A model generated the notes under the pieces. It saw only the letters and a program-made list of their open reading frames with translations, made no database searches and was not told the origin of the DNA. Below, piece by piece: positions 1-39,919 of a stretch of 39,919 bases of DNA. The position numbers were made by a program, and so were the translations under genes. Every line of letters starts with the position of its first letter. The stretch's first letter is position 1. The DNA lies in assembly GCA_011390265.1 (NCBI GenBank), contig JAABSU010000002.1, positions 1 to 39,919 on the forward strand, written 5' to 3'. The DNA is from Spirulina sp. (GTDB lineage: Bacteria > Cyanobacteriota > Cyanobacteriia > Cyanobacteriales > Spirulinaceae).

Positions 1-429
1 CTGTGGTACATCTCGAACCCGCTCGCGGTAATCAACTCGCTGTTGTTGACCTTCTTCTGTTGCCACTTTTTCTGAGCGGTAAGTTTTTTTTTGAGTTAAT
101 TCCTCTTTTTTGAGAAATCCACACATCCCTCCCACACTGACATAAACATCCTGCTCGTTCAGGAGATGTTCTCGATACTGTCGAACTGTCCAATCTGGGT
201 AATCCTGTACCATCTGAATGATAAACTCTCGATAAGGTTCCAGCTTTCCAGGACGATTCGGCCCTGGCTTTTTAGGAGTTAGATCTTGAGTTTCTCGGTA
301 TTTTTTGATATAACTATGAACAGTAGCAGGACTAATCGTAAATTGATCTGCAAGTTGCCGAATTGAGCCTTTGCCCAACTTATAGGCGGTGACAACTTTT
401 TCCCTAAGATCAACAGAGTAACGGCTCAT
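1..429 (-). mobile_element. IS630-family transposase, N-terminal part, continues beyond left edge
   Basis: Open frame from ATG (complement 427-429) to base 1: MSRYSVDLREKVVTAYKLGKGSIRQLADQFTISPATVHSYIKKYRETQDLTPKKPGPNRPGKLEPYREFIIQMVQDYPDWTVRQYREHLL...; helix-turn-helix typical of IS630 transposases. Confidence 0.85.
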
Positions 430-10151: not shown

Positions 10152-10871
10152 CTATATTGAAAAATCATCAGGCCAAATAAAATACGGGCCATATTTTTGA
10201 CTCATTTTGAATTCACCCCCTGCTTCTTTGCCTTTATCTGTGAGGTAGTTCTTTCCTTCTTTAACCTCAATATAACTAGAACTAATAAGTTTATCAAGAA
10301 GGATGTTTGTTTTTATGCCAAGTTTCTGTGCCAATTTTGATGTAGTAATTTTTTGATGAGTGCCATTTTCAGATTCTAATTTCGGATCTATTTTGCTTGA
10401 TACTTTCTTTACTTTCTCCAGTGAAATTTTTATTTCATCACTGATTCTGATGATTCGTTGAGCTTCTTCGTAAGCATCCTTGTATAAAACAGCATCCTCA
10501 CCTCTACGAATGAGAATTCCCATCTCGTTATTATTGATCTGGCTGAACTCATAAAGATTGAGACTTGTTACAATACATAATTCTTCATTGATGTAGCATT
10601 TAGCATGAAGATTTTTACAAAAACTTGTTCGGATATAGTTAAGTTCCTTGAGCCAATTTATTTCTTGATGTTGAAGTTCATTTTTTCCATAAACTATTCT
10701 GACATCAATTTTAAGCCTATCTTTATCTTCAAGAAGTTCTTTGAGCCTGTCATTCAGCTTAAGAAATGGGCTAATTAAAATAAGACGATCTTTTGCTGTT
10801 TTGATAAGTTCTTCAAGAAAATAATTCGTAGCACTTGTATTTAGAAATTTTGCCATTGTTCCTTTCCTCAA
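10152..10871 (-). CDS. PLD-superfamily (single HKD-like) protein with C-terminal winged-helix-like region
   Basis: LILISPFLKLNDRLKELL, HAKCYINEELCIVTSLNLYEFSQINNNEMGI (HxK motif); C-term ITTSKLAQKLGIKTNILLDKLISSSYIEVKEGKNYLTDKGKEAGGEF...GPYFIWPDDF. Confidence 0.75.
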   Translation of the reverse strand: MRKGTMAKFLNTSATNYFLEELIKTAKDRLILISPFLKLNDRLKELLEDKDRLKIDVRIVYGKNELQHQEINWLKELNYIRTSFCKNLHAKCYINEELCIVTSLNLYEFSQINNNEMGILIRRGEDAVLYKDAYEEAQRIIRISDEIKISLEKVKKVSSKIDPKLESENGTHQKITTSKLAQKLGIKTNILLDKLISSSYIEVKEGKNYLTDKGKEAGGEFKMSQKYGPYFIWPDDFSI

Positions 10872-11071
10872 ATTAAAATTAATACCATCTAACTTTTTTT
10901 AAGAGGGCTAACTATTAATCAGATAGTGATTAGCAACCAAGCTGTTTTAAGATGCTGGAAAGCCGAAACCCTTTCAAAACTGCACTTGACGGAAACTTTA
11001 GCATATAAATGCTGAGGTGTCAAAAATTGCCAGATCATCTACAAACTTTCATGGGCAACAGTGTTGGTGTG

Positions 11072-11143
11072 AGGGGCGATCGCCCCCCAATTGGCTCACT
11101 CGGAAAACATCTCAGCCAAGGTGTCAAGAACTCCTCCCCCAAT
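11072..11143 (+). repeat. Direct repeat copy 2, right of PLD gene
   Basis: AGGGGCGATCGCCCCCCAATTGGCTCACTCGGAAAACATCTCAGCCAAGGTGTCAAGAACTCCTC aligns with 10018-10079. Confidence 0.75.
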
Positions 11144-11175
11144 ACAAAGCACTGATCACCTCATAGAATAGTTTG

Positions 11176-11241
11176 TCAATCTAGTGCCGTAACAAATCGG
11201 GACAAATGACCTACATTGGTTGTTGCGACAACAATCGGCTC
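11176..11241 (-). pseudogene. Relic C-terminus of a PIN-domain VapC-type toxin
   Basis: Complement reads E-PIVVATTNVGHLSRFVTALD-stop, matching the usual VapC C-terminal motif, directly overlapping the stop of the antitoxin-like ORF. Confidence 0.65.
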
Positions 11242-11539
11242 ATGGAAATAGCGGACGCTCAGACAAGCGATCTTCATCCAAAGCGGTTTTCAAAAAGTCC
11301 CATGCTTGCTGATGCTCTGCTTCATCCTGATCATCACCCAGCCATGAATCTAAAAGGTCTACGGCTGCTTGATTTTTTCGTGCTTGTTCAGGATCAATAG
11401 TTGAAGGAGTTGATACAACATTCTGTCGAAACTGACGTAAGATGTCTAAAATTTCTCCCCAATAAGTCTGGGGTGTTGCCTCAATTTCATGGAGCAACAA
11501 ATTGAGGGATGTTGGAGAGGGGCTAGAAGGGTCTGCCAT
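11240..11539 (-). CDS. Antitoxin-like small protein (partner of deleted PIN toxin)
   Basis: 99 aa ORF, start MADPSSPSPTSLNLLLHEIEATPQTYWGEILDILRQF; its stop overlaps the PIN C-terminal relic. Confidence 0.5.
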   Translation of the reverse strand: MADPSSPSPTSLNLLLHEIEATPQTYWGEILDILRQFRQNVVSTPSTIDPEQARKNQAAVDLLDSWLGDDQDEAEHQQAWDFLKTALDEDRLSERPLFP

Positions 11540-11617
11540 CGCAGAAATCTCGTCGCATAACTATAAATTGATTCTAGCGCAGGACTGATTGGTGTGTGTA
11601 GGTGAGCGACTCGTTTT

Positions 11618-11740
11618 TCATCTTGTGCATTGCAGGAGGATACCAAACAAACCACAAATATTTTTTATTCTAAAGGGATCTAAAAATTTAGATGCTTGTA
11701 GGATAATGTCGATCATGACATCGGTGTCGACTATATACAT
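11618..11740 (-). pseudogene. Relic N-terminus of PIN-domain VapC toxin fused to unrelated tail
   Basis: Complement ATG at 11740: MYIVDTDVMIDI-ILQASKFLDPFRIKNICGLFGILLQCTR-stop; first 12 aa match PIN N-terminus, homology then stops. Confidence 0.6.
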
Positions 11741-11771
11741 GGGCTACCTAGGCTCTTTCGCGTTTTTCAGC

Positions 11772-12008
11772 TTAGTTACGCAATCGGCGGGCGTGTTCCT
11801 GGCTGTCAGCGATATCGGGTCGAGAGTTGATTCCGCCAACGCTTTCCCGGTAATCAACGAGATCTAGTCCTGTTTTGGGAGGGTTTTGGAGGAAAGGGCG
11901 AAAGGAGAGAACGCGAAGAATATACTCTGACAGAGGCAATTTAAGTTGGGATGCCTCAGCGGAGAGTTTATTTTCCAGATCAGAAGGCAACTCTATGCTA
12001 ATATTCAC
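11772..12008 (-). CDS. Antitoxin-like small protein, copy 1 (GTG start)
   Basis: VNISIELPSDLENKLSAEASQLKLPLSEYILRVLSF...RPDIADSQEHARRLRN; AAGGAGAG upstream of GTG; paralogous to 12666-12878. Confidence 0.6.
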   Translation of the reverse strand: MNISIELPSDLENKLSAEASQLKLPLSEYILRVLSFRPFLQNPPKTGLDLVDYRESVGGINSRPDIADSQEHARRLRN

Positions 12009-12024
12009 GATTCTCTCCTTAACT
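11841..12024. repeat. 184-bp direct repeat, copy 1
   Basis: Aligns without gaps to 12711-12894 with 9 mismatches counted by eye. Confidence 0.9.
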
Positions 12025-12420
12025 AAAAGGGTTGACAATTTTTAGCCCATCAATATCTGAATACCCAAAGTCTTCTGTATAGAGAGTTGCAACGTTTGCT
12101 TCTAAGCAAGCAGCAACCACCATCGAATCCCAGTGGGACAGACTAAAACGATTCATTAAGTCCTCAGCACGATCAATAACAGCCCAAGTGGGCAAAACTG
12201 TGTACCAAACTTGTTGCAAGTCGCGAATGTCTTGATAAGCCTGCACTCTGTTATAACCCAATGCTTCCAGCTTGCGACTTGCTGCCAAGTACTCACAGGC
12301 AACTTGCCAGATCAAAACCCCGTCTGTTAATGAAGATACCAAAGAAGCTGCTATTGTTTGTTTAACAGGATCGCGGGGATCATTAATGTAAATCAGGATA
12401 TTTGTGTCAACCGCGTTCAT
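12019..12420 (-). CDS. PIN-domain toxin (VapC-like)
   Basis: MNAVDTNILIYINDPRDP...SLSHWDSMVVAACLEANVATLYTEDFGYSDIDGLKIVNPF; start trimmed to internal ATG 12420. Confidence 0.85.
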   Translation of the reverse strand: MNAVDTNILIYINDPRDPVKQTIAASLVSSLTDGVLIWQVACEYLAASRKLEALGYNRVQAYQDIRDLQQVWYTVLPTWAVIDRAEDLMNRFSLSHWDSMVVAACLEANVATLYTEDFGYSDIDGLKIVNPFS

Positions 12421-12649
12421 GCAACATATCCCGTGTAAAATGAGGAGCATGAGCAGGAATAGGGTTTTGTTGCATTCGCTCAACCAATAGTTTTAGAAAG
12501 TTTTGTCTAGCAGTAATATCAGTAATCCTAGGTGGAGCAACTTGGGCTGATTGCACAAAAAGCTCAACTTCAATGCCTTCAGGTAAGTTACAGGCTGACT
12601 GAAGAATAAATGTGCCATTTTGGTAAACTGCTTTTAAGGCTTGGGGCAT
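12407..12649 (-). CDS. AF2212/DUF104-like antitoxin
   Basis: MPQALKAVYQNGTFILQSACNLPEGIEVELFVQ; overlaps PIN toxin start by 14 nt. Confidence 0.8.
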   Translation of the reverse strand: MPQALKAVYQNGTFILQSACNLPEGIEVELFVQSAQVAPPRITDITARQNFLKLLVERMQQNPIPAHAPHFTRDMLHERG

Positions 12650-12665
12650 AGGAAGACTCCATATA

Positions 12666-12878
12666 TCAAGAAACCTTACGGGTGGTGACTATAATTCTAA
12701 CCCAAACTATGCTTTCCCAGTAGGCAACGAGATCTAGTCCTGTTTTGGGAGGGTTTTGAAGGAAAGGGCGAAAGGAGAGAACGCGAAGAATATACTCTGA
12801 CAGAGGCAATTTAAGTTGAGATGCCTCAGCGGAGAGTTCATTTTCCAGATCAGAAGGCAACTCTATGCTAATGTTCAT
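12666..12878 (-). pseudogene. Antitoxin-like protein copy 2, C-terminally truncated
   Basis: MNISIELPSDLENELSAEASQLKLPLSEYILRVLSFRPFLQNPPKTGLDLVAYWES then unrelated IVWVRIIVTTRKVS. Confidence 0.6.
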
Positions 12879-12894
12879 GATTCTCTCTTTAACT
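12711..12894. repeat. 184-bp direct repeat, copy 2
   Basis: See 11841-12024. Confidence 0.9.
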
Positions 12895-12900
12895 CACTTC

Positions 12901-13629
12901 TTAACTAAGGTAATCATTATTCATCTCTTTGAGTTTCATCCAAGAAGATAAATCCTTGAGAAAGATTTTGTTGAAAAATTTTATCTCAACTAACTTCCTT
13001 AATTCGTTATGAATTCTTTCGCGTTTCCACTTGTTTAATTCTCGTATATCGAGTATTATTTGATTATCGCGTACTCTCACCCATTCAAACCTTGGAAGTT
13101 TCCTGATTTCTATTGCTGGCTTCTCTGGAATCTCTATTATATATGTGCCCTCGCTGACAAAGAATTTCGCTGCGTTTTTATTATTGTAAATTAAGTCATC
13201 TAAATCATGTATAATCTTTGTGTGAAAATCATGAAATTCTTTTGCTTTATTTATTGATGATATTTTGCTTGAGTAATCGACGGGCATCATAAATTTATCG
13301 AGATGAGATACGAACTCTAGATCGTTGATCTCGCCCTGAAAAATTTCAATAAGCATTTTGCACTTTTCTAAGGCTGAAATATGAAACCATTCTGTTGAAC
13401 CATTTCCTAATTTGGATGTGTGAAATGAGTATTTATCAAGATATCCATGAACTCCAGACTCAATTTTTTCAACTATTCTTCTCTGTGGATGCTGATACAC
13501 CTCACTCTCCAGCTTGTTTATTTTACCAAAGCTAGCCTCAATAGAGTTTAAGCGAGACTCTATATTACTTGTTATACCTACCTTAAAGCATGGCTCTGTA
13601 GCTGAAACCAATATGTATAAATATTCCAT
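12901..13629 (-). CDS. GIY-YIG / T5orf172-like nuclease-family protein with novel C-terminal region
   Basis: MEYLYILVSATEPCFKVGITSNIESRLNSIEASFG...VEKIESGVHGYLDKYSF...STEWFHIS. Confidence 0.65.
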   Translation of the reverse strand: MEYLYILVSATEPCFKVGITSNIESRLNSIEASFGKINKLESEVYQHPQRRIVEKIESGVHGYLDKYSFHTSKLGNGSTEWFHISALEKCKMLIEIFQGEINDLEFVSHLDKFMMPVDYSSKISSINKAKEFHDFHTKIIHDLDDLIYNNKNAAKFFVSEGTYIIEIPEKPAIEIRKLPRFEWVRVRDNQIILDIRELNKWKRERIHNELRKLVEIKFFNKIFLKDLSSWMKLKEMNNDYLS

Positions 13630-13833
13630 CTTACAAGTGCAGAAATTTTTAATGTCTATATATTATAGCGGTTTCTCAATCCATAAGGTACATTCTGAAG
13701 CCCTTCGTCCTCTTTGGGAGAGGGGTTTAGGGTGACGGATATACCTCATGAATGCGCGGATATACACCTTAGCGTAAAAAGGCTATCAGCATTTGTTGTT
13801 AAGGGTTATAGTGCTAAAGTAAAGGAGTGTTAC

Positions 13834-13905
13834 GATAAACCAAATTCTCCCAGGCGCAAACATGATGGTGGCTGTGCTAGGTCGGGACTGAACAGCTTGT
13901 TAGGT
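13834..13905. other. Candidate attC-like imperfect palindrome (site B)
   Basis: Minus strand ACCTAACAAGCTGTTCAGTCCC starts 1 nt after the stop of ORF 13907-14359; arms pair in order TAA, TTC, TCCC, GCA with bulges; opposite core degenerate. Confidence 0.3.
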
Positions 13906-13906
13906 G

Positions 13907-14359
13907 CTAGATATCGATTAAATGCCATGCTTCCAGATGAAAATTATCAGGATCTCTGAAATTACGAATACTGGAATCTTTTCTTTCCGAACCATCACTC
14001 TTTTGACCCAAAAGCCATTCACGATGATTTCTAGATATATATTCAGCGACAATTTTGCTAGAAACAATATAGAATTGCGGTCGTGTACCAAGAGTTTTTA
14101 AGGAAACAAAAATATAGTAGTGATGATCAGAAAAAAATGTTTCTGATTTCTTATTGAGAATCCATTTGTTTTCACCTTTACTATTCGTTTTTACCTGAAT
14201 ACTTACTGATTTTGTTCCGTCTGAATTGCTTGCAACAATATCTATTCCTCTACTGTTACGCAAAGTAATCGATGCTATGTACCCTCGTAGTGTCAACTCC
14301 CCTGCCACTAAATACTCACCAGCAACACCGACAAGCGTAGACTCAAGTTTAAATTTCAT
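13907..14359 (-). CDS. Putative PD-(D/E)XK-fold protein
   Basis: GVAGEYLVAGELTLRGYIASITLRNSRGIDIVASNSDGTKSVSIQVKTN: E...GIDI...QVKT signature. Confidence 0.6.
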   Translation of the reverse strand: MKFKLESTLVGVAGEYLVAGELTLRGYIASITLRNSRGIDIVASNSDGTKSVSIQVKTNSKGENKWILNKKSETFFSDHHYYIFVSLKTLGTRPQFYIVSSKIVAEYISRNHREWLLGQKSDGSERKDSSIRNFRDPDNFHLEAWHLIDI

Positions 14360-14536
14360 TTTTAACCGCTAACGATTTATTAAACGGTGCTTAGAAGCCT
14401 AGGTAATTTAACATTGGATTCACCTCTAACCCTGCGATAAATTCGCCATATATGGTAAAAATATCATAAATGTTCAGGTGAAAAGCTGTGTCTGATCCAA
14501 TTGTATCGACTATCTAGGAAAACGTCAAGCCTTAAA

Positions 14537-14594
14537 GTCTAACGTCCAAGCTCACCCGCCGACGTAGGATGTCGAGTGGAGTGCAGGGTTAGCT
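14537..14594. other. Candidate attC-like imperfect palindrome (site A)
   Basis: GTCTAACGTCCAAGCTCACCCGCCGACGTAGGATGTCGAGTGGAGTGCAGGGTTAGCT; 58 nt, RYYYAAC at left, GTTAGCT at right (one base off GTTRRRY), imperfect stem with GTAGGAT loop. Confidence 0.4.
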
Positions 14595-14724
14595 GCCTAT
14601 ACGGTGCTGCATTATAAACCTCTTTCATGATTAGCTGTTGGGACTGGGGTTATCAGGGGTGTAGTCTGTTTTTGCTGTGGCTGCTATGATTTAGGCAGAT
14701 GATTTAAGCATTGGAGGCAAAAGC

Positions 14725-14964
14725 ATGAGTTTAGTCATTTCAGGCGATCTCGTAAGAGCTAGTGGCTTTTCGGAAGACGAGCTTTTTTTGGAAATTGTGT
14801 TGATGCTATTCCGACAAGACAAAATTAGTTTAGGGAAAGCGAGTGAGTTAGTTGGATTGCATCGGATGCAGTTTCAAAAACTGTTAGCAGATCGAGAAAT
14901 TTGTGTTCATTATGATGTCGCTGAGTTTCAAGATGATCTCAATACTCTACAGAATGCAGACTAA
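14725..14964 (+). CDS. UPF0175-family antitoxin
   Basis: LFLEIVLMLFRQDKISLGKASELVGLHRMQFQKLLADREICVHYDVAEFQDDL. Confidence 0.88.
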   Translation: MSLVISGDLVRASGFSEDELFLEIVLMLFRQDKISLGKASELVGLHRMQFQKLLADREICVHYDVAEFQDDLNTLQNAD

Positions 14965-14966
14965 TC

Positions 14967-15452
14967 GTGATTATAGTTAGTAATACTTCACCAATTTCAA
15001 ATTTAGCCAGCGTTGGGCAATTAAGCCTATTGCAAGAAATTTATGGAAAAATTCTGATTCCATCTGCGGTACGAGAGGAATTATTGGATGAGCGGGCTGG
15101 GGAAACAGTGATCACAGCGGTTCAAGCAGCAACTTGGTTGGAAGTTCATTCAGTGCAAAATCAAAAATTGGTTGCTGATTTAATCACTCGTATTAATATT
15201 GGTGAGGCGGAGGCAATTGCACTGGCGATTGAAGTGGGAGCGGGTCGATTATTAATTGATGAGCGTTTGGGTAGACAAGCTGCAAAAAATGTTGGTTTGA
15301 AAATTACGGGTGTTTTGGGAATTTTGCTATTTGCAAAACGCCTCAATTTAATTAGTGCGGTTAAGCCAATCATGAACGACTTGACCACTCAAGCAAATTT
15401 TAGAATCAGCAGCCAACTTTATGCAGATGTTTTAAGTGAAGCGAATGAATAA
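14967..15452 (+). CDS. DUF3368/PIN-domain toxin
   Basis: MIIVSNTSPISNLASVGQLSLLQEIYGKILIPSAVREEL...INIGEAEAIALAIEVGAGRLLIDERLGRQAAKNVGLKITGVLGILLFAK; GTG start 3 nt after antitoxin. Confidence 0.9.
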   Translation: MIIVSNTSPISNLASVGQLSLLQEIYGKILIPSAVREELLDERAGETVITAVQAATWLEVHSVQNQKLVADLITRINIGEAEAIALAIEVGAGRLLIDERLGRQAAKNVGLKITGVLGILLFAKRLNLISAVKPIMNDLTTQANFRISSQLYADVLSEANE

Positions 15453-24586: not shown

Positions 24587-25447
24587 CTATGTTTCCACAT
24601 TTCCCGGCGGCTCGATGCCCTGGGCTTGGAGCTGGGCTTTCAGTTGGGCTAACTCCGCCAAAGCTGCCTCTGCCCGTTGGCGTTCAGCTTCCGCTCGTTG
24701 GGATTCGGCTTCTGCTCGTTGGGATTCGGCTTCCGCTCGTTGGGATTCGGCTTCTGCTCGTTGGGATTCGGCTTCCGCTCGTTGGGATTCAATTCGGGCC
24801 TGTTCCTCTGGCAATAACACCAAATCCCCTTCCGGCGTGAAAAAGCGTAACCATGGGGCGGTTTCCCTTTGCAGTGTTCCCTCCCAAATCCCCAACCAGA
24901 GGCCGAGGGATTCACACCAGAGCCAGCCGCGATCGCTCTTTCCTAACGGCTCATAACCCTGACCCCCCAAATGCCAACCCTGCAACGATTGAGGGGCAAA
25001 GGGATCATAAACAAAATAGTCCCGCGTGCTAAAGACCCGCTCATAGATCTGCTTTTTCGTCACCTGATCCTCCCGTGCCGTGGAGGGAGACATTAACTCC
25101 ACAATCACATCAGGGTAGCGGCCCCCCTCTTCCCAAACAACCCAACCCTGCCGCTCTTGGCTCCCGTCCACATCCAGAACGGCAAAAAAGTCCGGGCCGC
25201 GAAAATCCCGATTCCGGGCCTGCTCACTGCTGAAATAAATGAACATATTGCCGCCGGTGAAATAGTCATCTCGCTCCGCCAGGGCAACATGGGTGGCAGC
25301 GATGAGCACATTCATGGCAATGCGGTGGCGATTGCTTTCCAAGGGTTCTCCATCGTCAAAAATGAGATCCGTGGGGGGCATGGGTGGCTCCCAGGGAGTC
25401 GCCTCTGCCTCTACTATTGGTGTATCTTGCGTGAGTTCAGCAGCCAT
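24587..25447 (-). CDS. Uma2-family putative endonuclease with heptad-repeat tail
   Basis: PPTDLIFDDGEPLESNRHR...RNRDFRGPDFFAVLDVD...GRYPDVIVELMSPSTAREDQVTKKQIYERVFSTRDYFVYDP; tail (SQRAEAE)5. Confidence 0.88.
   Translation of the reverse strand: MAAELTQDTPIVEAEATPWEPPMPPTDLIFDDGEPLESNRHRIAMNVLIAATHVALAERDDYFTGGNMFIYFSSEQARNRDFRGPDFFAVLDVDGSQERQGWVVWEEGGRYPDVIVELMSPSTAREDQVTKKQIYERVFSTRDYFVYDPFAPQSLQGWHLGGQGYEPLGKSDRGWLWCESLGLWLGIWEGTLQRETAPWLRFFTPEGDLVLLPEEQARIESQRAEAESQRAEAESQRAEAESQRAEAESQRAEAERQRAEAALAELAQLKAQLQAQGIEPPGNVET
24687..24791. repeat. 21-bp tandem repeat x5 (heptad codons)
   Basis: GCTTC[C/T]GCTCGTTGGGATTCG, alternating C/T/C/T/C. Confidence 0.95.
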
Positions 25448-29473: not shown

Positions 29474-30352
29474 ATGATCAACGCCACAATTGAGTATTGT
29501 GTGGAGCGGCTTCGAGCTGGCCATCGCCAACTCTACGGTTCTGAACCCACCCCTTGGCTCGACATCCTCACTGAAGCAACGACGGTAATCCTGAAGGCGA
29601 TCGCCACCAGTGATGCCGCCTATCACGATGTCGAGCATACTCTGTTGGTGACACTCACCGGAGCGGTTTTGCTCCAGGGTAAGCAGCAGCGGGAGGGCGG
29701 TGTCACCGTGGAAGATTGGGGTCATAGCCTCTTGGCGTTGCTGTGCCATGATATTGGCTATGTGCGGGGGGTTTGTGAGGGCGATCGCCCCAGTTATCAG
29801 CTTTACACCACCGGGATCGGGGCACAAATGATCAGCCTCCCCCCGACGGCCACCGATGCCAGCCTCACCCCCTACCATGTGGATCGCAGTCTTTGCGTTG
29901 TGGCAGAGCGCTGGAGTCAGTATCCCGAAATTGATCTCGCCCGCGTCCAAGCCGGGGTCGATCGCACCCGTTTCCCCATCCCCAAGGGAGCACCCTATGA
30001 CAACACCACCGATTACCCAGCCCTAATCCGCGCCGCCGATTTATTGGGGCAACTGGCGGACCCCCGCTATTTACAAAAACTCCCCGCCCTTTTTGCCGAA
30101 TTTGCCGAAAATGGCACAAATCAGCAATTGGGCTATAGCCATGCGGGGGATTTACGGGCCGGGTTTCCTGGTTTTTTTTGGCGGGTGGTTTATCCCTACA
30201 TTGAACCCAGCTTGCCCTATCTGAGCGCAACCCAAGCCGGTCAGCAGGTGATTGCCAATCTTTACGGCAATGTTTTCACGGTGGAGCATGAGTTAAACTC
30301 AAGGGCAGTGCAACAGCAGAGTTGTGGGAAACCCCTTGCATCTAACCCTTAA
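29474..30352 (+). CDS. HD-domain metalloprotein (cyanobacterial)
   Basis: YHDVEHTLLVTLTG...LLALLCHDIGYVRG...RAADLLGQLADPRYLQKLPAL. Confidence 0.8.
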   Translation: MINATIEYCVERLRAGHRQLYGSEPTPWLDILTEATTVILKAIATSDAAYHDVEHTLLVTLTGAVLLQGKQQREGGVTVEDWGHSLLALLCHDIGYVRGVCEGDRPSYQLYTTGIGAQMISLPPTATDASLTPYHVDRSLCVVAERWSQYPEIDLARVQAGVDRTRFPIPKGAPYDNTTDYPALIRAADLLGQLADPRYLQKLPALFAEFAENGTNQQLGYSHAGDLRAGFPGFFWRVVYPYIEPSLPYLSATQAGQQVIANLYGNVFTVEHELNSRAVQQQSCGKPLASNP

Positions 30353-36736: not shown

Positions 36737-38113
36737 ATGCTCGCCACTCAATCCACCGCGACGCTGGTTCAAGCCCAGCGAGACTATTTTCAAACCGGTC
36801 AAACCCGTCCCTACGAATTTCGCCGCCAACAACTCCAGGCCCTAGCCGCTGCCATTCAAGGGGCGGAAGTCCCGATTCAGCAGGCCTTGGCGGCGGATTT
36901 GGGCAAATCCGTATTTGAGGCGACATTGACGGAAATCAGCGGCGCGTTGAGTGAAATTCAGCATACGCTCAAGCATTTCAAGGCTTGGATGGCTCCGCAG
37001 CGGGTGCGGACGAGTCTTGTTCAGTTTCCGGCTCAGGGGGAAATTTGGGCGGAACCCTTGGGGGTGGTGTTGAATATTAGCCCCTGGAATTATCCGTTTC
37101 AGTTGGCCATGGGGCCGTTGATTGGGGCGATCGCCGCTGGCAATTGTATGATCCTCAAACCTTCGGAACTCTCCCCCCACACCTCGGGGGTGATTGCCGA
37201 GTTAATCGCTAAAACCTTCCCGCCGGAATATATCACCGTTGTGGAAGGGGATAAAACGATCACCCAAGATCTGCTCAAAAACCGCTTTGATCATATTTTC
37301 TTTACCGGCGGCACGGCCATTGGCCGGTTAATCATGGCAGCAGCGGCTCCCCATTTAACGCCGGTAACGTTGGAGTTGGGGGGGAAAAGCCCCTGTATTG
37401 TTGGGCCGGATGCGCCTGTGGAGTTAACGGCGCGGCGGATTGCCTGGGGTAAGTTCATTAATGCGGGGCAGACTTGTATTGCGCCGGATTATGTGTTGGT
37501 TCCCCCGGAGTTAAAAGCGCCGCTGTTGGGGCAATTGCGCCATTGGATCCGGGAGTTTTACGGGGAAAATCCAGCAGATAGCCCGGATTATGGGCGGATT
37601 ATCAATGAACACCATTGGCAGCGGTTGCGGGATTTAATTGATCCTGCTCAGGTGACGGTTGGGGGTGAGGGCGATTGCGCTTCTCGTTATCTGGCCCCGA
37701 CGGTGTTGGATGGGGTGGGTTGGGATGATCCGGTGATGGAGGCGGAGATTTTTGGGCCGATTTTGCCGATTTTGACCTATGGGGAGATGGAGGAGGCGAT
37801 CGCCGCCATCAATGCCCGGCCGAAGCCCTTGGCCCTCTATCTGTTCAGCAATGACAAAGATTTACAAAACCAAGTTCTGAGCCAAACCAGTAGCGGCGGG
37901 GTCTGTATCAATGACACGATCATGCATTTGGGTGCGCCGTCGATGCCCTTTGGGGGTGTGGGGGAAAGTGGTATGGGGGCATACCATGGCAAGTTCACGT
38001 TCGATACGTTTTCCCACCGCAAGAGCGTCTTAAAGCGCAAGTTCTGGCTAGATCTGGATCTGCGCTATCCCCCCTATCAGGACAAGTTGAAATGGCTGAA
38101 GTGGCTACCCTAG
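36737..38113 (+). CDS. Aldehyde dehydrogenase (ALDH3-like)
   Basis: VVLNISPWNYPFQLAMGPLIGAIAAGNCMILKPSE, FTGGTAIGRLIM, LELGGKSPCIV, GQTCIAPDYVL, MPFGGVGESGMGAYHGKFTFDTFSHRKSV. Confidence 0.93.
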   Translation: MLATQSTATLVQAQRDYFQTGQTRPYEFRRQQLQALAAAIQGAEVPIQQALAADLGKSVFEATLTEISGALSEIQHTLKHFKAWMAPQRVRTSLVQFPAQGEIWAEPLGVVLNISPWNYPFQLAMGPLIGAIAAGNCMILKPSELSPHTSGVIAELIAKTFPPEYITVVEGDKTITQDLLKNRFDHIFFTGGTAIGRLIMAAAAPHLTPVTLELGGKSPCIVGPDAPVELTARRIAWGKFINAGQTCIAPDYVLVPPELKAPLLGQLRHWIREFYGENPADSPDYGRIINEHHWQRLRDLIDPAQVTVGGEGDCASRYLAPTVLDGVGWDDPVMEAEIFGPILPILTYGEMEEAIAAINARPKPLALYLFSNDKDLQNQVLSQTSSGGVCINDTIMHLGAPSMPFGGVGESGMGAYHGKFTFDTFSHRKSVLKRKFWLDLDLRYPPYQDKLKWLKWLP

Positions 38114-38274: not shown

Positions 38275-39919
38275 ATGTCAGCAAATAAGGTTTCTCGTTA
38301 TGTTCGGTTGGCAGTGGTTACGTTCGCTTTCATCCTCTCTACCTTTTTCATTAATCACTTAACTCGCGTTAACTTATTTTTATTGTTAAGTAATGTTCAT
38401 CCAATTTTGATACTTTTAGGGGCGATTATATTTGGGGCGATCGCGTTTGTTGGGCCGGATTGGTTAAAGGTTGAGGAAACGCCGCCGGAGGAGCTACTCC
38501 GGAAGTTATGGCAAAAGAATCATGATGAGATTGAGGAGCGTCTTAAAGGCTGCCTTGATCTAGACAAGTCTATTGATATTCACAGCACGGATGCCCCTGA
38601 ATATTTGGGGCGATCTCCTCAGCAAGTTCTCTCTACGCCAATCCCAACTCCTACTCCAGCGACGGTTAGCGGTGGGCGAAAGTGGTTTTTCTTTTGGCGG
38701 CCTCCTGCTGTAATTGAGCAGATTTTCCAGTCTAGTCCCACGATTGAAACGCGGCGCGATCTAGAGGATTTGGAAACTGAGGAGACGGAGGAAATTCCGC
38801 CCAGTAAGCCGATTTTAGAGATTTTTGAGGAGGCGGAACGTCGTCTGTTGATTCTGGGTGAACCGGGTAGTGGCAAAACGACGGAGTTGCTTAAGCTTGC
38901 CAAAGCTTTGGGGGATAATCCGAAGGAGCCGATCCCGATTATTTTTGAGCTTTCGGCATGGCGGGGTGAGCCGATGCTGGATTGGATGGTGGGGGAAATG
39001 GTGGCGCGGGTGGGTGTGAGTCCGAAGTTATGCCGCTATTGGTTGATTCATCATCGTATTTTGCCGTTATTGGATGGTTTGGATGAGTTGGGGGAGCAAC
39101 GAGCAAAGGAGGCGGTTTGGGCCATTGATGCTTTGCAGGAGCAGGCTACTGAGCAGCAAAACGGTCTGGTGATTTGTTGCCGTGTGGAAGATTATAAAAA
39201 GCTGATGGATGGGGAGGAGCAGTCGATACCGTTGGGGAAGATGAAGCGGGCTGTGCGGTTGCGGGCGTTATCTAATCGGCAGATTGAAGATTATTTAGAT
39301 CAGCGGGGGGCGGCGTTTTTGTGGAAGGATTTGCAGGCGCATTCGGGGTTTATGGCGTTGGCGCGAAGTCCGATGTTACTGCATTTGATGCCGGGAACTT
39401 ATCCAAAGGGGTTGCCGCAGGATTTGCCAGAAGCTGAGGCAGATTGTCAAGGGCGATTGTTTGATGATTTTTTACAGCAAAAGCTTTATCCACAGCCGGG
39501 ACGGCCGCAATGGCTGGCTGGGTACAAACCGGAGCAGGCGGAATATTATCTTGCATGGTTGGCGGCGAGTATGGGGCGTGAGGACATCAACCAACGGGAG
39601 TTTTTAATTGAGCGGTTGCAACCAACGTGGTTGGAAACTCAACAACAACGTAAGGAATATAAGCTGATTATTGGACTGATCATTGGGCTGATTAGTGGGT
39701 TGCTTTACAGTCTAATGTATGGGCTACTGTTTGGGTTGATTGGTGGGCTGATTGTCAGGATAATTATTGATGAAAAAAAACGAAATAAAGAATGGTCAAT
39801 TTATTTAATTAGTTTGACAGAAGCTTTTGACTTTTCTCAAAAAAATGTAAAACGTGCTGTATACCTTATCGCATCTCGTTCAGTAGCTTTTGGGTTGATG
39901 GGTGGGTTGATGGGTGGGT
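38275..39919 (+). CDS. NACHT-type NTPase with N-terminal TM pair and C-terminal Gly-rich TM repeats, incomplete at right edge
   Basis: Open frame from ATG 38275 to window end: MSANKVSRYVRLAVVTFAFILSTFF...RRLLILGEPGSGKTTELLKLA (Walker A)...HHRILPLLDGLDELGEQ (Walker B)...ICCRVEDY...KLIIGLIIGLISGLLYSLMYGLLFGLIGGLIV...AFGLMGGLMGG. Confidence 0.85.
   Translation, partial: MSANKVSRYVRLAVVTFAFILSTFFINHLTRVNLFLLLSNVHPILILLGAIIFGAIAFVGPDWLKVEETPPEELLRKLWQKNHDEIEERLKGCLDLDKSIDIHSTDAPEYLGRSPQQVLSTPIPTPTPATVSGGRKWFFFWRPPAVIEQIFQSSPTIETRRDLEDLETEETEEIPPSKPILEIFEEAERRLLILGEPGSGKTTELLKLAKALGDNPKEPIPIIFELSAWRGEPMLDWMVGEMVARVGVSPKLCRYWLIHHRILPLLDGLDELGEQRAKEAVWAIDALQEQATEQQNGLVICCRVEDYKKLMDGEEQSIPLGKMKRAVRLRALSNRQIEDYLDQRGAAFLWKDLQAHSGFMALARSPMLLHLMPGTYPKGLPQDLPEAEADCQGRLFDDFLQQKLYPQPGRPQWLAGYKPEQAEYYLAWLAASMGREDINQREFLIERLQPTWLETQQQRKEYKLIIGLIIGLISGLLYSLMYGLLFGLIGGLIVRIIIDEKKRNKEWSIYLISLTEAFDFSQKNVKRAVYLIASRSVAFGLMGGLMGG

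What the first reader, a model, noticed from the sequence alone, without database searches (positions are those of the whole stretch)
38275..39919. Membrane-bracketed NACHT NTPase running off the right edge
Hand translation gives an unbroken frame (missing from the ORF track because the stop lies outside). It has two N-terminal TM helices, a NACHT core with GEPGSGKTT and LLDGLDELGE, then repeated G-L-x-x-G-L hydrophobic segments. NACHT/STAND proteins include bacterial anti-phage sensors. TM segments on both sides of the ATPase suggest a membrane-disrupting effector, but that function is inference.
Basis: partly seen in the sequence, partly recalled or inferred. Interest (0 to 1): 0.65.

Follow-up and report, generated by a model that had tools for sequence, protein, structure and literature searches.

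The report
Membrane NACHT switch with dead-peptidase relatives
The end of this cyanobacterial contig carries most of a gene for an immune-receptor-like molecular switch that is threaded through the cell membrane; its close relatives end in a signal peptidase that has lost its cutting residues and is predicted to face outward, which suggests a sensor or decoy rather than a simple membrane toxin.

Summary
ATG 38275 opens a frame that runs unbroken off the contig end (the window is the whole contig C114). It encodes two N-terminal TM helices, a genuine NACHT domain (Pfam above cut-off; closest folds NOD2 and NLRC4), and the start of a glycine-zipper GLxxGLxxGL membrane block. The contig stops in a 12-bp coding repeat of that block. 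(1) The 189-272 aa membrane block is inserted inside the winged-helix domain of an otherwise ordinary NACHT protein. (2) In the window's own clade, all 10 genes readable to the end carry, or have a remnant of, a C-terminal signal-peptidase-I-like domain. The ten fused domains compared lack the catalytic Ser (10/10), mostly the Lys (7/10) and the GDNR box (10/10), and are predicted to face the periplasm. A 41-aa tail of this type opens contig C97 of the same MAG and is probably the missing end. N-termini swap between kinase, CHAT, TIR, cyclase and EAD domains, as in STAND conflict proteins. 'NACHT/STAND' is supported. 'Membrane-disrupting effector' is possible but unproven, because the constant membrane block looks like switch architecture. 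No neighbouring defence partner was found. This is a new variant of a known kind.

The parts
38275..39919 (+). 5' part (548 aa) of a membrane-integral NACHT STAND gene; ATG start; 3' end missing because the contig ends
   Evidence: open frame; protein start aligns with relatives
38296..38466 (+). N-terminal pair of TM helices (about residues 8-28 and 43-64), in the slot where other family members have kinase, CHAT, TIR, cyclase or EAD domains
   Evidence: hydropathy, AlphaFold helices 2-31 and 43-64, domain scans
38839..39300 (+). NACHT NTPase domain (P-loop 38857-38883, Walker B 39067-39096)
   Evidence: Pfam PF05729; Foldseek to NOD2 and NLRC4
39301..39639 (+). helical domain and first half of the winged-helix domain, ending ...LAWLAASMGREDINQREFLIERLQPTWLE
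   Evidence: profile-profile alignment with canonical XRE-NACHT proteins; AlphaFold
39640..39919 (+). start of the glycine-zipper (GLxxGLxxGL) polytopic membrane block inserted in the winged-helix domain; truncated by the contig end
39891..39919 (.). perfect 12-bp coding tandem repeat (TGGGTTGATGGG) at which the contig stops
   Evidence: Tandem Repeats Finder; contigs of three other family members also end in this block (L059, L070, L080)

Best explanation
The gene encodes a membrane-integral NACHT (NLR-related) STAND switch. Anatomy, by computation: N-terminal TM hairpin; cytoplasmic NACHT NTPase plus helical domain; a winged-helix domain split by a six-helix glycine-zipper membrane block; and, in the complete clade members and probably here, a ninth TM helix carrying a catalytically dead signal-peptidase-I-like domain on the outer face. 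Proposed mechanism, inferred: the resting protein is held ADP-bound by its winged-helix domain, as in NOD2 and NLRC4. A signal at the C-terminal sensor (peptide, inhibitor or envelope change bound by the pseudo-peptidase) is passed through the TM block to the winged helix. Nucleotide exchange follows and the protein oligomerises in the plane of the membrane. Clustering brings together the N-terminal module. Here that is a TM hairpin, so the output would be local membrane perturbation; in paralogues it is a kinase, CHAT protease, TIR or cyclase. The likely purpose is conflict or abortive-type immunity, or envelope-stress-triggered cell death.
For: NACHT. TM block inside the winged helix: excising it raises the hhalign score against canonical NACHT proteins to 183.2 over 282 columns through the winged helix; without the post-block segment the score is 166.8, 40 shuffles of that segment reached at most 170.7, and the segment alone lands on canonical columns 325-350. 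AlphaFold of a complete relative shows helix, beta-hairpin, helix at 609-641 after six TM helices. Helix parity and loop charges put NACHT and winged helix inside and the C-terminal domain outside. Dead peptidase: Ser 0/10, Lys 3/10, GDNR box 0/10 in fused domains against 18/18 for each in separate LepB proteins; fold matches SPase I and S. pyogenes SipA, TMt 0.70. The window sits in a 15-row NACHT clade (100/99) in which every gene readable to its end has the domain or its remnant. The C97 tail in the same MAG scores best with fused tails (25/38 and 24/40 identical) rather than LepB (best 16/40). Effector-slot swapping. The fused domain is kept under purifying selection, pairwise dN/dS 0.25-0.57.
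Against: The C-terminus of the window gene itself is not in the contig, and its link to C97 is inferred. No ligand, oligomer, membrane damage or phage phenotype is shown. The TM hairpin may only anchor the protein. No conserved operon partner or defence island was seen. The topology comes from a model and charge counts.
Confidence: 0.55

Rival explanations
1. One reading: the glycine-zipper TM block is itself the effector and forms a pore when the NACHT ring assembles, depolarising the membrane.
For: GxxxGxxxG runs favour close helix packing; six or more TM helices per subunit lie in the block; the block is tied directly to the winged helix, which moves on activation in NLRs (established knowledge).
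Against: The block is constant in members that already carry an enzymatic N-terminal module (kinase, CHAT, TIR, cyclase), so it does not behave like a swappable effector. It sits inside the regulatory winged helix.
Confidence: 0.2
2. It is not immune at all: an envelope or secretion-stress signal transducer that uses STAND mechanics for ordinary regulation.
For: The SPase-like C-terminus, and ClpS in other members, point to protein export and quality control; no defence neighbours; housekeeping genes flank it.
Against: Patchy distribution, absence of close orthologues in the same genus, tandem paralogues and TIR/CHAT/EAD N-termini are the usual pattern of conflict proteins.
Confidence: 0.25
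3. The window gene is a decaying or truncated copy that ends soon after the contig edge.
For: A close relative in Spirulina sp. CCY15215 stops after the winged helix, with a broken peptidase remnant downstream in another frame.
Against: 548 codons are intact here. The contig end lies in a repeat at which three other assemblies also break. A fused-type tail with its own stop opens C97.
Confidence: 0.12

Closest known systems
Bacterial NACHT proteins (bNACHT; NLR-related antiphage proteins, PMC12169576)
   Same: P-loop NACHT core, helical and winged-helix domains, tripartite plan with N-terminal module and C-terminal sensor; profile match to XRE-NACHT proteins of the same family of cyanobacteria
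   Different: A 189-272 aa polytopic membrane block splits the winged helix; C-terminus is a pseudo-signal peptidase, WD40 or TPR-ClpS instead of SNaCT/NCH; antiphage activity untested
Animal NLRs NOD2, NLRC4 and NLRP3
   Same: Best PDB fold matches of the NACHT module
   Different: No LRRs; membrane-integral; identity only 11-20%
Type I signal peptidase (Pfam PF10502, LepB)
   Same: Fold, preceding TM helix and predicted outward orientation of the C-terminal domain in relatives
   Different: Catalytic Ser, usually Lys, and the GDNRxxSxD box are lost
Streptococcus pyogenes SipA, a signal peptidase homologue needed for pilus polymerisation (PDB 4n31)
   Same: Signal peptidase fold with the best domain coverage, TMt 0.70; from my own knowledge SipA also lacks the catalytic residues
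   Different: Stand-alone pilus chaperone, not fused to a STAND NTPase
Plant NLRs with integrated decoys (discussed in e.g. PMC8813719)
   Same: STAND NTPase with a fused, enzyme-derived domain that no longer works as an enzyme; analogy only
   Different: No homology of the fused domain, no evidence of a pathogen effector that targets signal peptidase

Membership tests
NACHT (PF05729) STAND NTPase | Pfam NACHT above gathering score | tested here: met
   30.6 bits against 26.7; all 51 members of alignment A2 match
NACHT (PF05729) STAND NTPase | Walker A and NACHT-type Walker B (D-G-x-D-E) | tested here: met
   GEPGSGKTT and LLDGLDELGE; P-loop Gly/Pro/Gly/Gly/Lys/Thr and Walker B D-x-L-D invariant in 51 rows
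NACHT (PF05729) STAND NTPase | Helical domain plus winged helix after the NTPase | tested here: inconclusive
   First half present in the window; second half only in relatives, where it is met
NACHT (PF05729) STAND NTPase | C-terminal sensor region | tested here: inconclusive
   Beyond the contig end; inferred from clade and C97
Known antiphage bNACHT or other defence family | Match to a curated antiphage model at its cut-off | tested here: not met
   EruA 26.4 bits against 1000, HyoA 15.1 against 1200; PADLOC best mad8 E=1.3e-5 over the P-loop only
Known antiphage bNACHT or other defence family | Phage protection dependent on the NTPase | not testable with these tools
   needs an experiment
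Known antiphage bNACHT or other defence family | Defence-island context | tested here: not met
   No PADLOC hit in the two upstream neighbours tested (29474-30352, 36737-38113); neighbours not conserved; downstream side unseen
Type I signal peptidase (S26), for the fused C-terminal domain of relatives | S26 sequence profile and fold | tested here: met
   PF10502 E down to 3e-19; Foldseek to SpsB and SipA
Type I signal peptidase (S26), for the fused C-terminal domain of relatives | Catalytic Ser-Lys dyad and GDNRxxSxD box | tested here: not met
   Ser 0/10, Lys 3/10, box 0/10; controls 18/18
Glycine-zipper membrane pore | GxxxGxxxG TM helices | tested here: met
   3 in the window against shuffle maximum 2; long runs in relatives
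Glycine-zipper membrane pore | Pore formation | not testable with these tools
   needs liposome or patch assays

The most novel reading that the evidence does not exclude
A bacterial NLR-like receptor that signals across the membrane: a dead signal peptidase, held outside the cytoplasm as an integrated decoy or bait, senses attack on or saturation of protein export (by phage, inhibitor or competitor) and triggers a cytoplasmic NACHT oligomerisation switch through glycine-zipper helices built into its own winged-helix domain.
Probability: 0.2. Interest if true: 0.85.

Novelty: new variant of a known kind. Interest (0 to 1): 0.62.

Why it matters
Bacterial NACHT proteins are usually described as cytoplasmic switches with N-terminal effectors and C-terminal sensors. 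A common cyanobacterial branch (119 of 291 sampled genomes of the class; also found in Chloroflexota, Pseudomonadota and ANME archaea) has the membrane built into the winged-helix domain that controls activation. One clade hangs a dead signal peptidase on the far side of the membrane. If the topology holds, this offers a testable bacterial case of transmembrane NLR signalling, and possibly of the integrated-decoy principle known from plants.

Tried and rejected
Housekeeping with universal synteny: rejected. Simple two-sided TM anchor: rejected as a full description, since the C-terminal TMs are an insert within the winged helix. Armadillo-repeat and other phmmer hits in PDB sequences were treated as spurious against the fold search. 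A second close paralogue in the same MAG that could own the C97 tail was looked for; only a weak 30% P-loop match on C293 was found. Romo1, Tim17 and holin Pfam hits in the GL block are single-member or sub-threshold and treated as composition. Active signal peptidase at the C-terminus: rejected on catalytic residues. Single-origin test for the SPase fusion on the NACHT tree: the strict count gives 6 changes, but four of the non-SPase rows in the clade are contig-truncated and one is a decayed copy. The Moorena member L130 lies outside the clade, so a second gain or domain transfer is possible and unresolved. Literature: no paper in the held library joins NACHT with signal peptidase in cyanobacteria (one irrelevant hit) or with glycine zipper; the library is incomplete and the main bNACHT paper is not held. 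Laying the whole genome in the Python box was not available.

Full report
WHAT IS IN THE WINDOW. The window is a complete contig (C114, 39919 bp) of a cyanobacterial draft genome of 3.57 Mb in 343 contigs, 83% complete. The reported frame is real: it opens at ATG 38275 and runs without a stop to the last base. A start at 38275 is supported by alignment with relatives, whose proteins begin MSSKGRLSRYVRLA, MSKKENRFFRYARLA and so on. The stop is missing from the assembly, not overlooked. Pfam NACHT scores 30.6 bits (cut-off 26.7). AlphaFold of the 548-aa product (mean pLDDT 77, with the NTPase above 90) matches NOD2 and NLRC4 best among solved structures. The contig ends in a perfect 12-bp coding repeat, TGGGTTGATGGG, at 39891-39919. 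Three other assemblies also end inside the same GL block of this gene (L059, L070, L080), so the truncation is most likely an assembly break at a low-complexity coding repeat.

THE FAMILY. Homologues were found in 37 of 59 related genomes and, with a profile, in 119 of 291 genomes across the class. A scan of GTDB species added Chloroflexota, Pseudomonadota and ANME/Methanosarcinales members. Extracting complete frames gives one shared core: NACHT, helical domain, QTEFLIExxQPxWL, a long membrane block with GLIxGLI repeats, PNQGI, QHFxLRxxL, PWNYxxFLxYA, and VGGxYRFxHxxLxEHFA. The N-terminus is swapped: protein kinase, CHAT, TIR, EAD1, EAD7, class III cyclase or a TM hairpin. The C-terminus is usually short but can carry WD40, TPR plus ClpS, or a signal-peptidase-like domain. 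Swapped N-terminal modules around a constant NTPase are the STAND logic described for bacterial NACHT proteins (PMC12169576).

THE MEMBRANE BLOCK IS AN INSERT IN THE WINGED HELIX. Canonical NACHT proteins from the same bacterial family end their switch module with ...LLSQLA..FF......(I/V)L.(A/S)IE.QHGLL.ERA..IYSFSHLTFQEYL. In the TM family, LAWLA...REFLIE is separated from FLxYAxxxxxLxxVGGxYRFxHxxLxEHFA by 189-272 residues (53 sequences). With the block cut out, profile-profile alignment runs through the whole winged helix (score 183.2, 282 columns). Without the post-block segment it is 166.8. Shuffling that segment's columns 40 times gave 166.7 on average and at most 170.7. The segment alone aligns to the matching canonical columns. 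AlphaFold of the complete Roseofilum homologue L055 (pLDDT 81.8, pTM 0.70) shows the same: six TM helices between 392 and 583, then helix, beta-hairpin, helix at 609-641.

THE C-TERMINUS OF THE WINDOW'S CLADE. A maximum-likelihood tree of the NACHT core places the window in a 15-row clade (100/99; nearest Oscillatoria sp. HE19RPO, 70% identical over the core). Nine of the other fourteen carry an S26 signal-peptidase-like domain; four are cut by contig ends; one (Spirulina sp. CCY15215) has a broken remnant just downstream. A tenth fused protein (Moorena L130) lies outside the clade. The ten fused domains form one group apart from 18 stand-alone LepB proteins from eight genomes (the Moorena branch is long). 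All 18 LepB keep the catalytic Ser, Lys and GDNRxxSxD box. The fused domains keep Ser in 0/10, Lys in 3/10 and the box in 0/10. The fold is retained: Foldseek matches SpsB and, with the best domain coverage, SipA of S. pyogenes. The domain is conserved under selection (pairwise dN/dS 0.25-0.57) but changes faster at the protein level than NACHT; these are simple pairwise estimates without significance tests.

THE PROBABLE MISSING END. In the same draft genome, contig C97 begins inside a frame VIADNSNYPHLETYGTIIPRKNILGQLVLRVYPFDRFGPIP*. It lacks the LepB box and is most like the fused tails of Spirulina CCY15215 (25/38 identical) and Oscillatoria HE19RPO (24/40); the best LepB scores 16/40. These two are also among the nearest relatives of the window protein. 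No other close paralogue exists in the draft. The join C114-(about 300 aa missing)-C97 is therefore likely but remains inferred.

TOPOLOGY AND MECHANISM. With a TM hairpin, six TM helices in the block and one before the peptidase-like domain, NACHT and winged helix fall in the cytoplasm and the pseudo-peptidase outside. The positively charged loop GLRADLKVRQKPN and the acidic loop after the seventh helix agree with this. This is the side on which real signal peptidases work. The best-supported model is a membrane-integral STAND switch in which an outward sensor acts through the TM block on the winged helix, releasing NTP-driven assembly that clusters the N-terminal module. Shown by computation: domain identity, insertion, loss of catalytic residues, predicted topology. 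Inferred: ligand, direction of signalling, oligomerisation, output, immune role. Whether the N-terminal hairpin of this subfamily is the effector or an anchor is open.

CONTEXT. Upstream lie an aldehyde dehydrogenase and signalling or metabolic genes; no PADLOC hits in the two upstream neighbours tested. Neighbourhoods of relatives share nothing systematic. The two same-genus genomes have only distant family members. This fits an accessory, scattered gene.

Noticed in passing
L075:7701-10109, L086:7704-10076: TM-NACHT family members whose C-terminus is TPR repeats plus a ClpS-like domain (PF02617), a second case of a protein quality-control adaptor fused at the sensor position.
   Followed up: partly
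L054:9950-10222: Remnant of the signal-peptidase-like domain downstream of a stop and in another frame in Spirulina sp. CCY15215, i.e. recent decay of the C-terminus in one close relative.
   Followed up: partly
window 1-429 (-): Helix-turn-helix transposase-like fragment cut by the left contig end, so both contig ends lie in repeat-prone sequence.
   Followed up: no
window 24587-25447 (-), repeat 24675-24790: Uma2-family protein with a 21-bp coding tandem repeat (QRAEAES units) at its C-terminus.
   Followed up: no
window 10152-15452: Cluster of small accessory genes: PLD-like protein, PIN-like ORF, DUF3368 protein matching PADLOC candidate PDC-S70; about 23 kb from the NACHT gene.
   Followed up: partly
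G050:C48 (L048:4685-9805), G043:C11, G012:C99, G021:C1: Several genomes carry tandem or multiple TM-NACHT paralogues, including a kinase-NACHT-TM gene next to a TM-NACHT-TM gene.
   Followed up: no
L043:8273-8624 and relatives: The GL membrane block is a coding minisatellite with 12/24/36-bp units, so helix length may vary in whole four-residue steps.
   Followed up: partly
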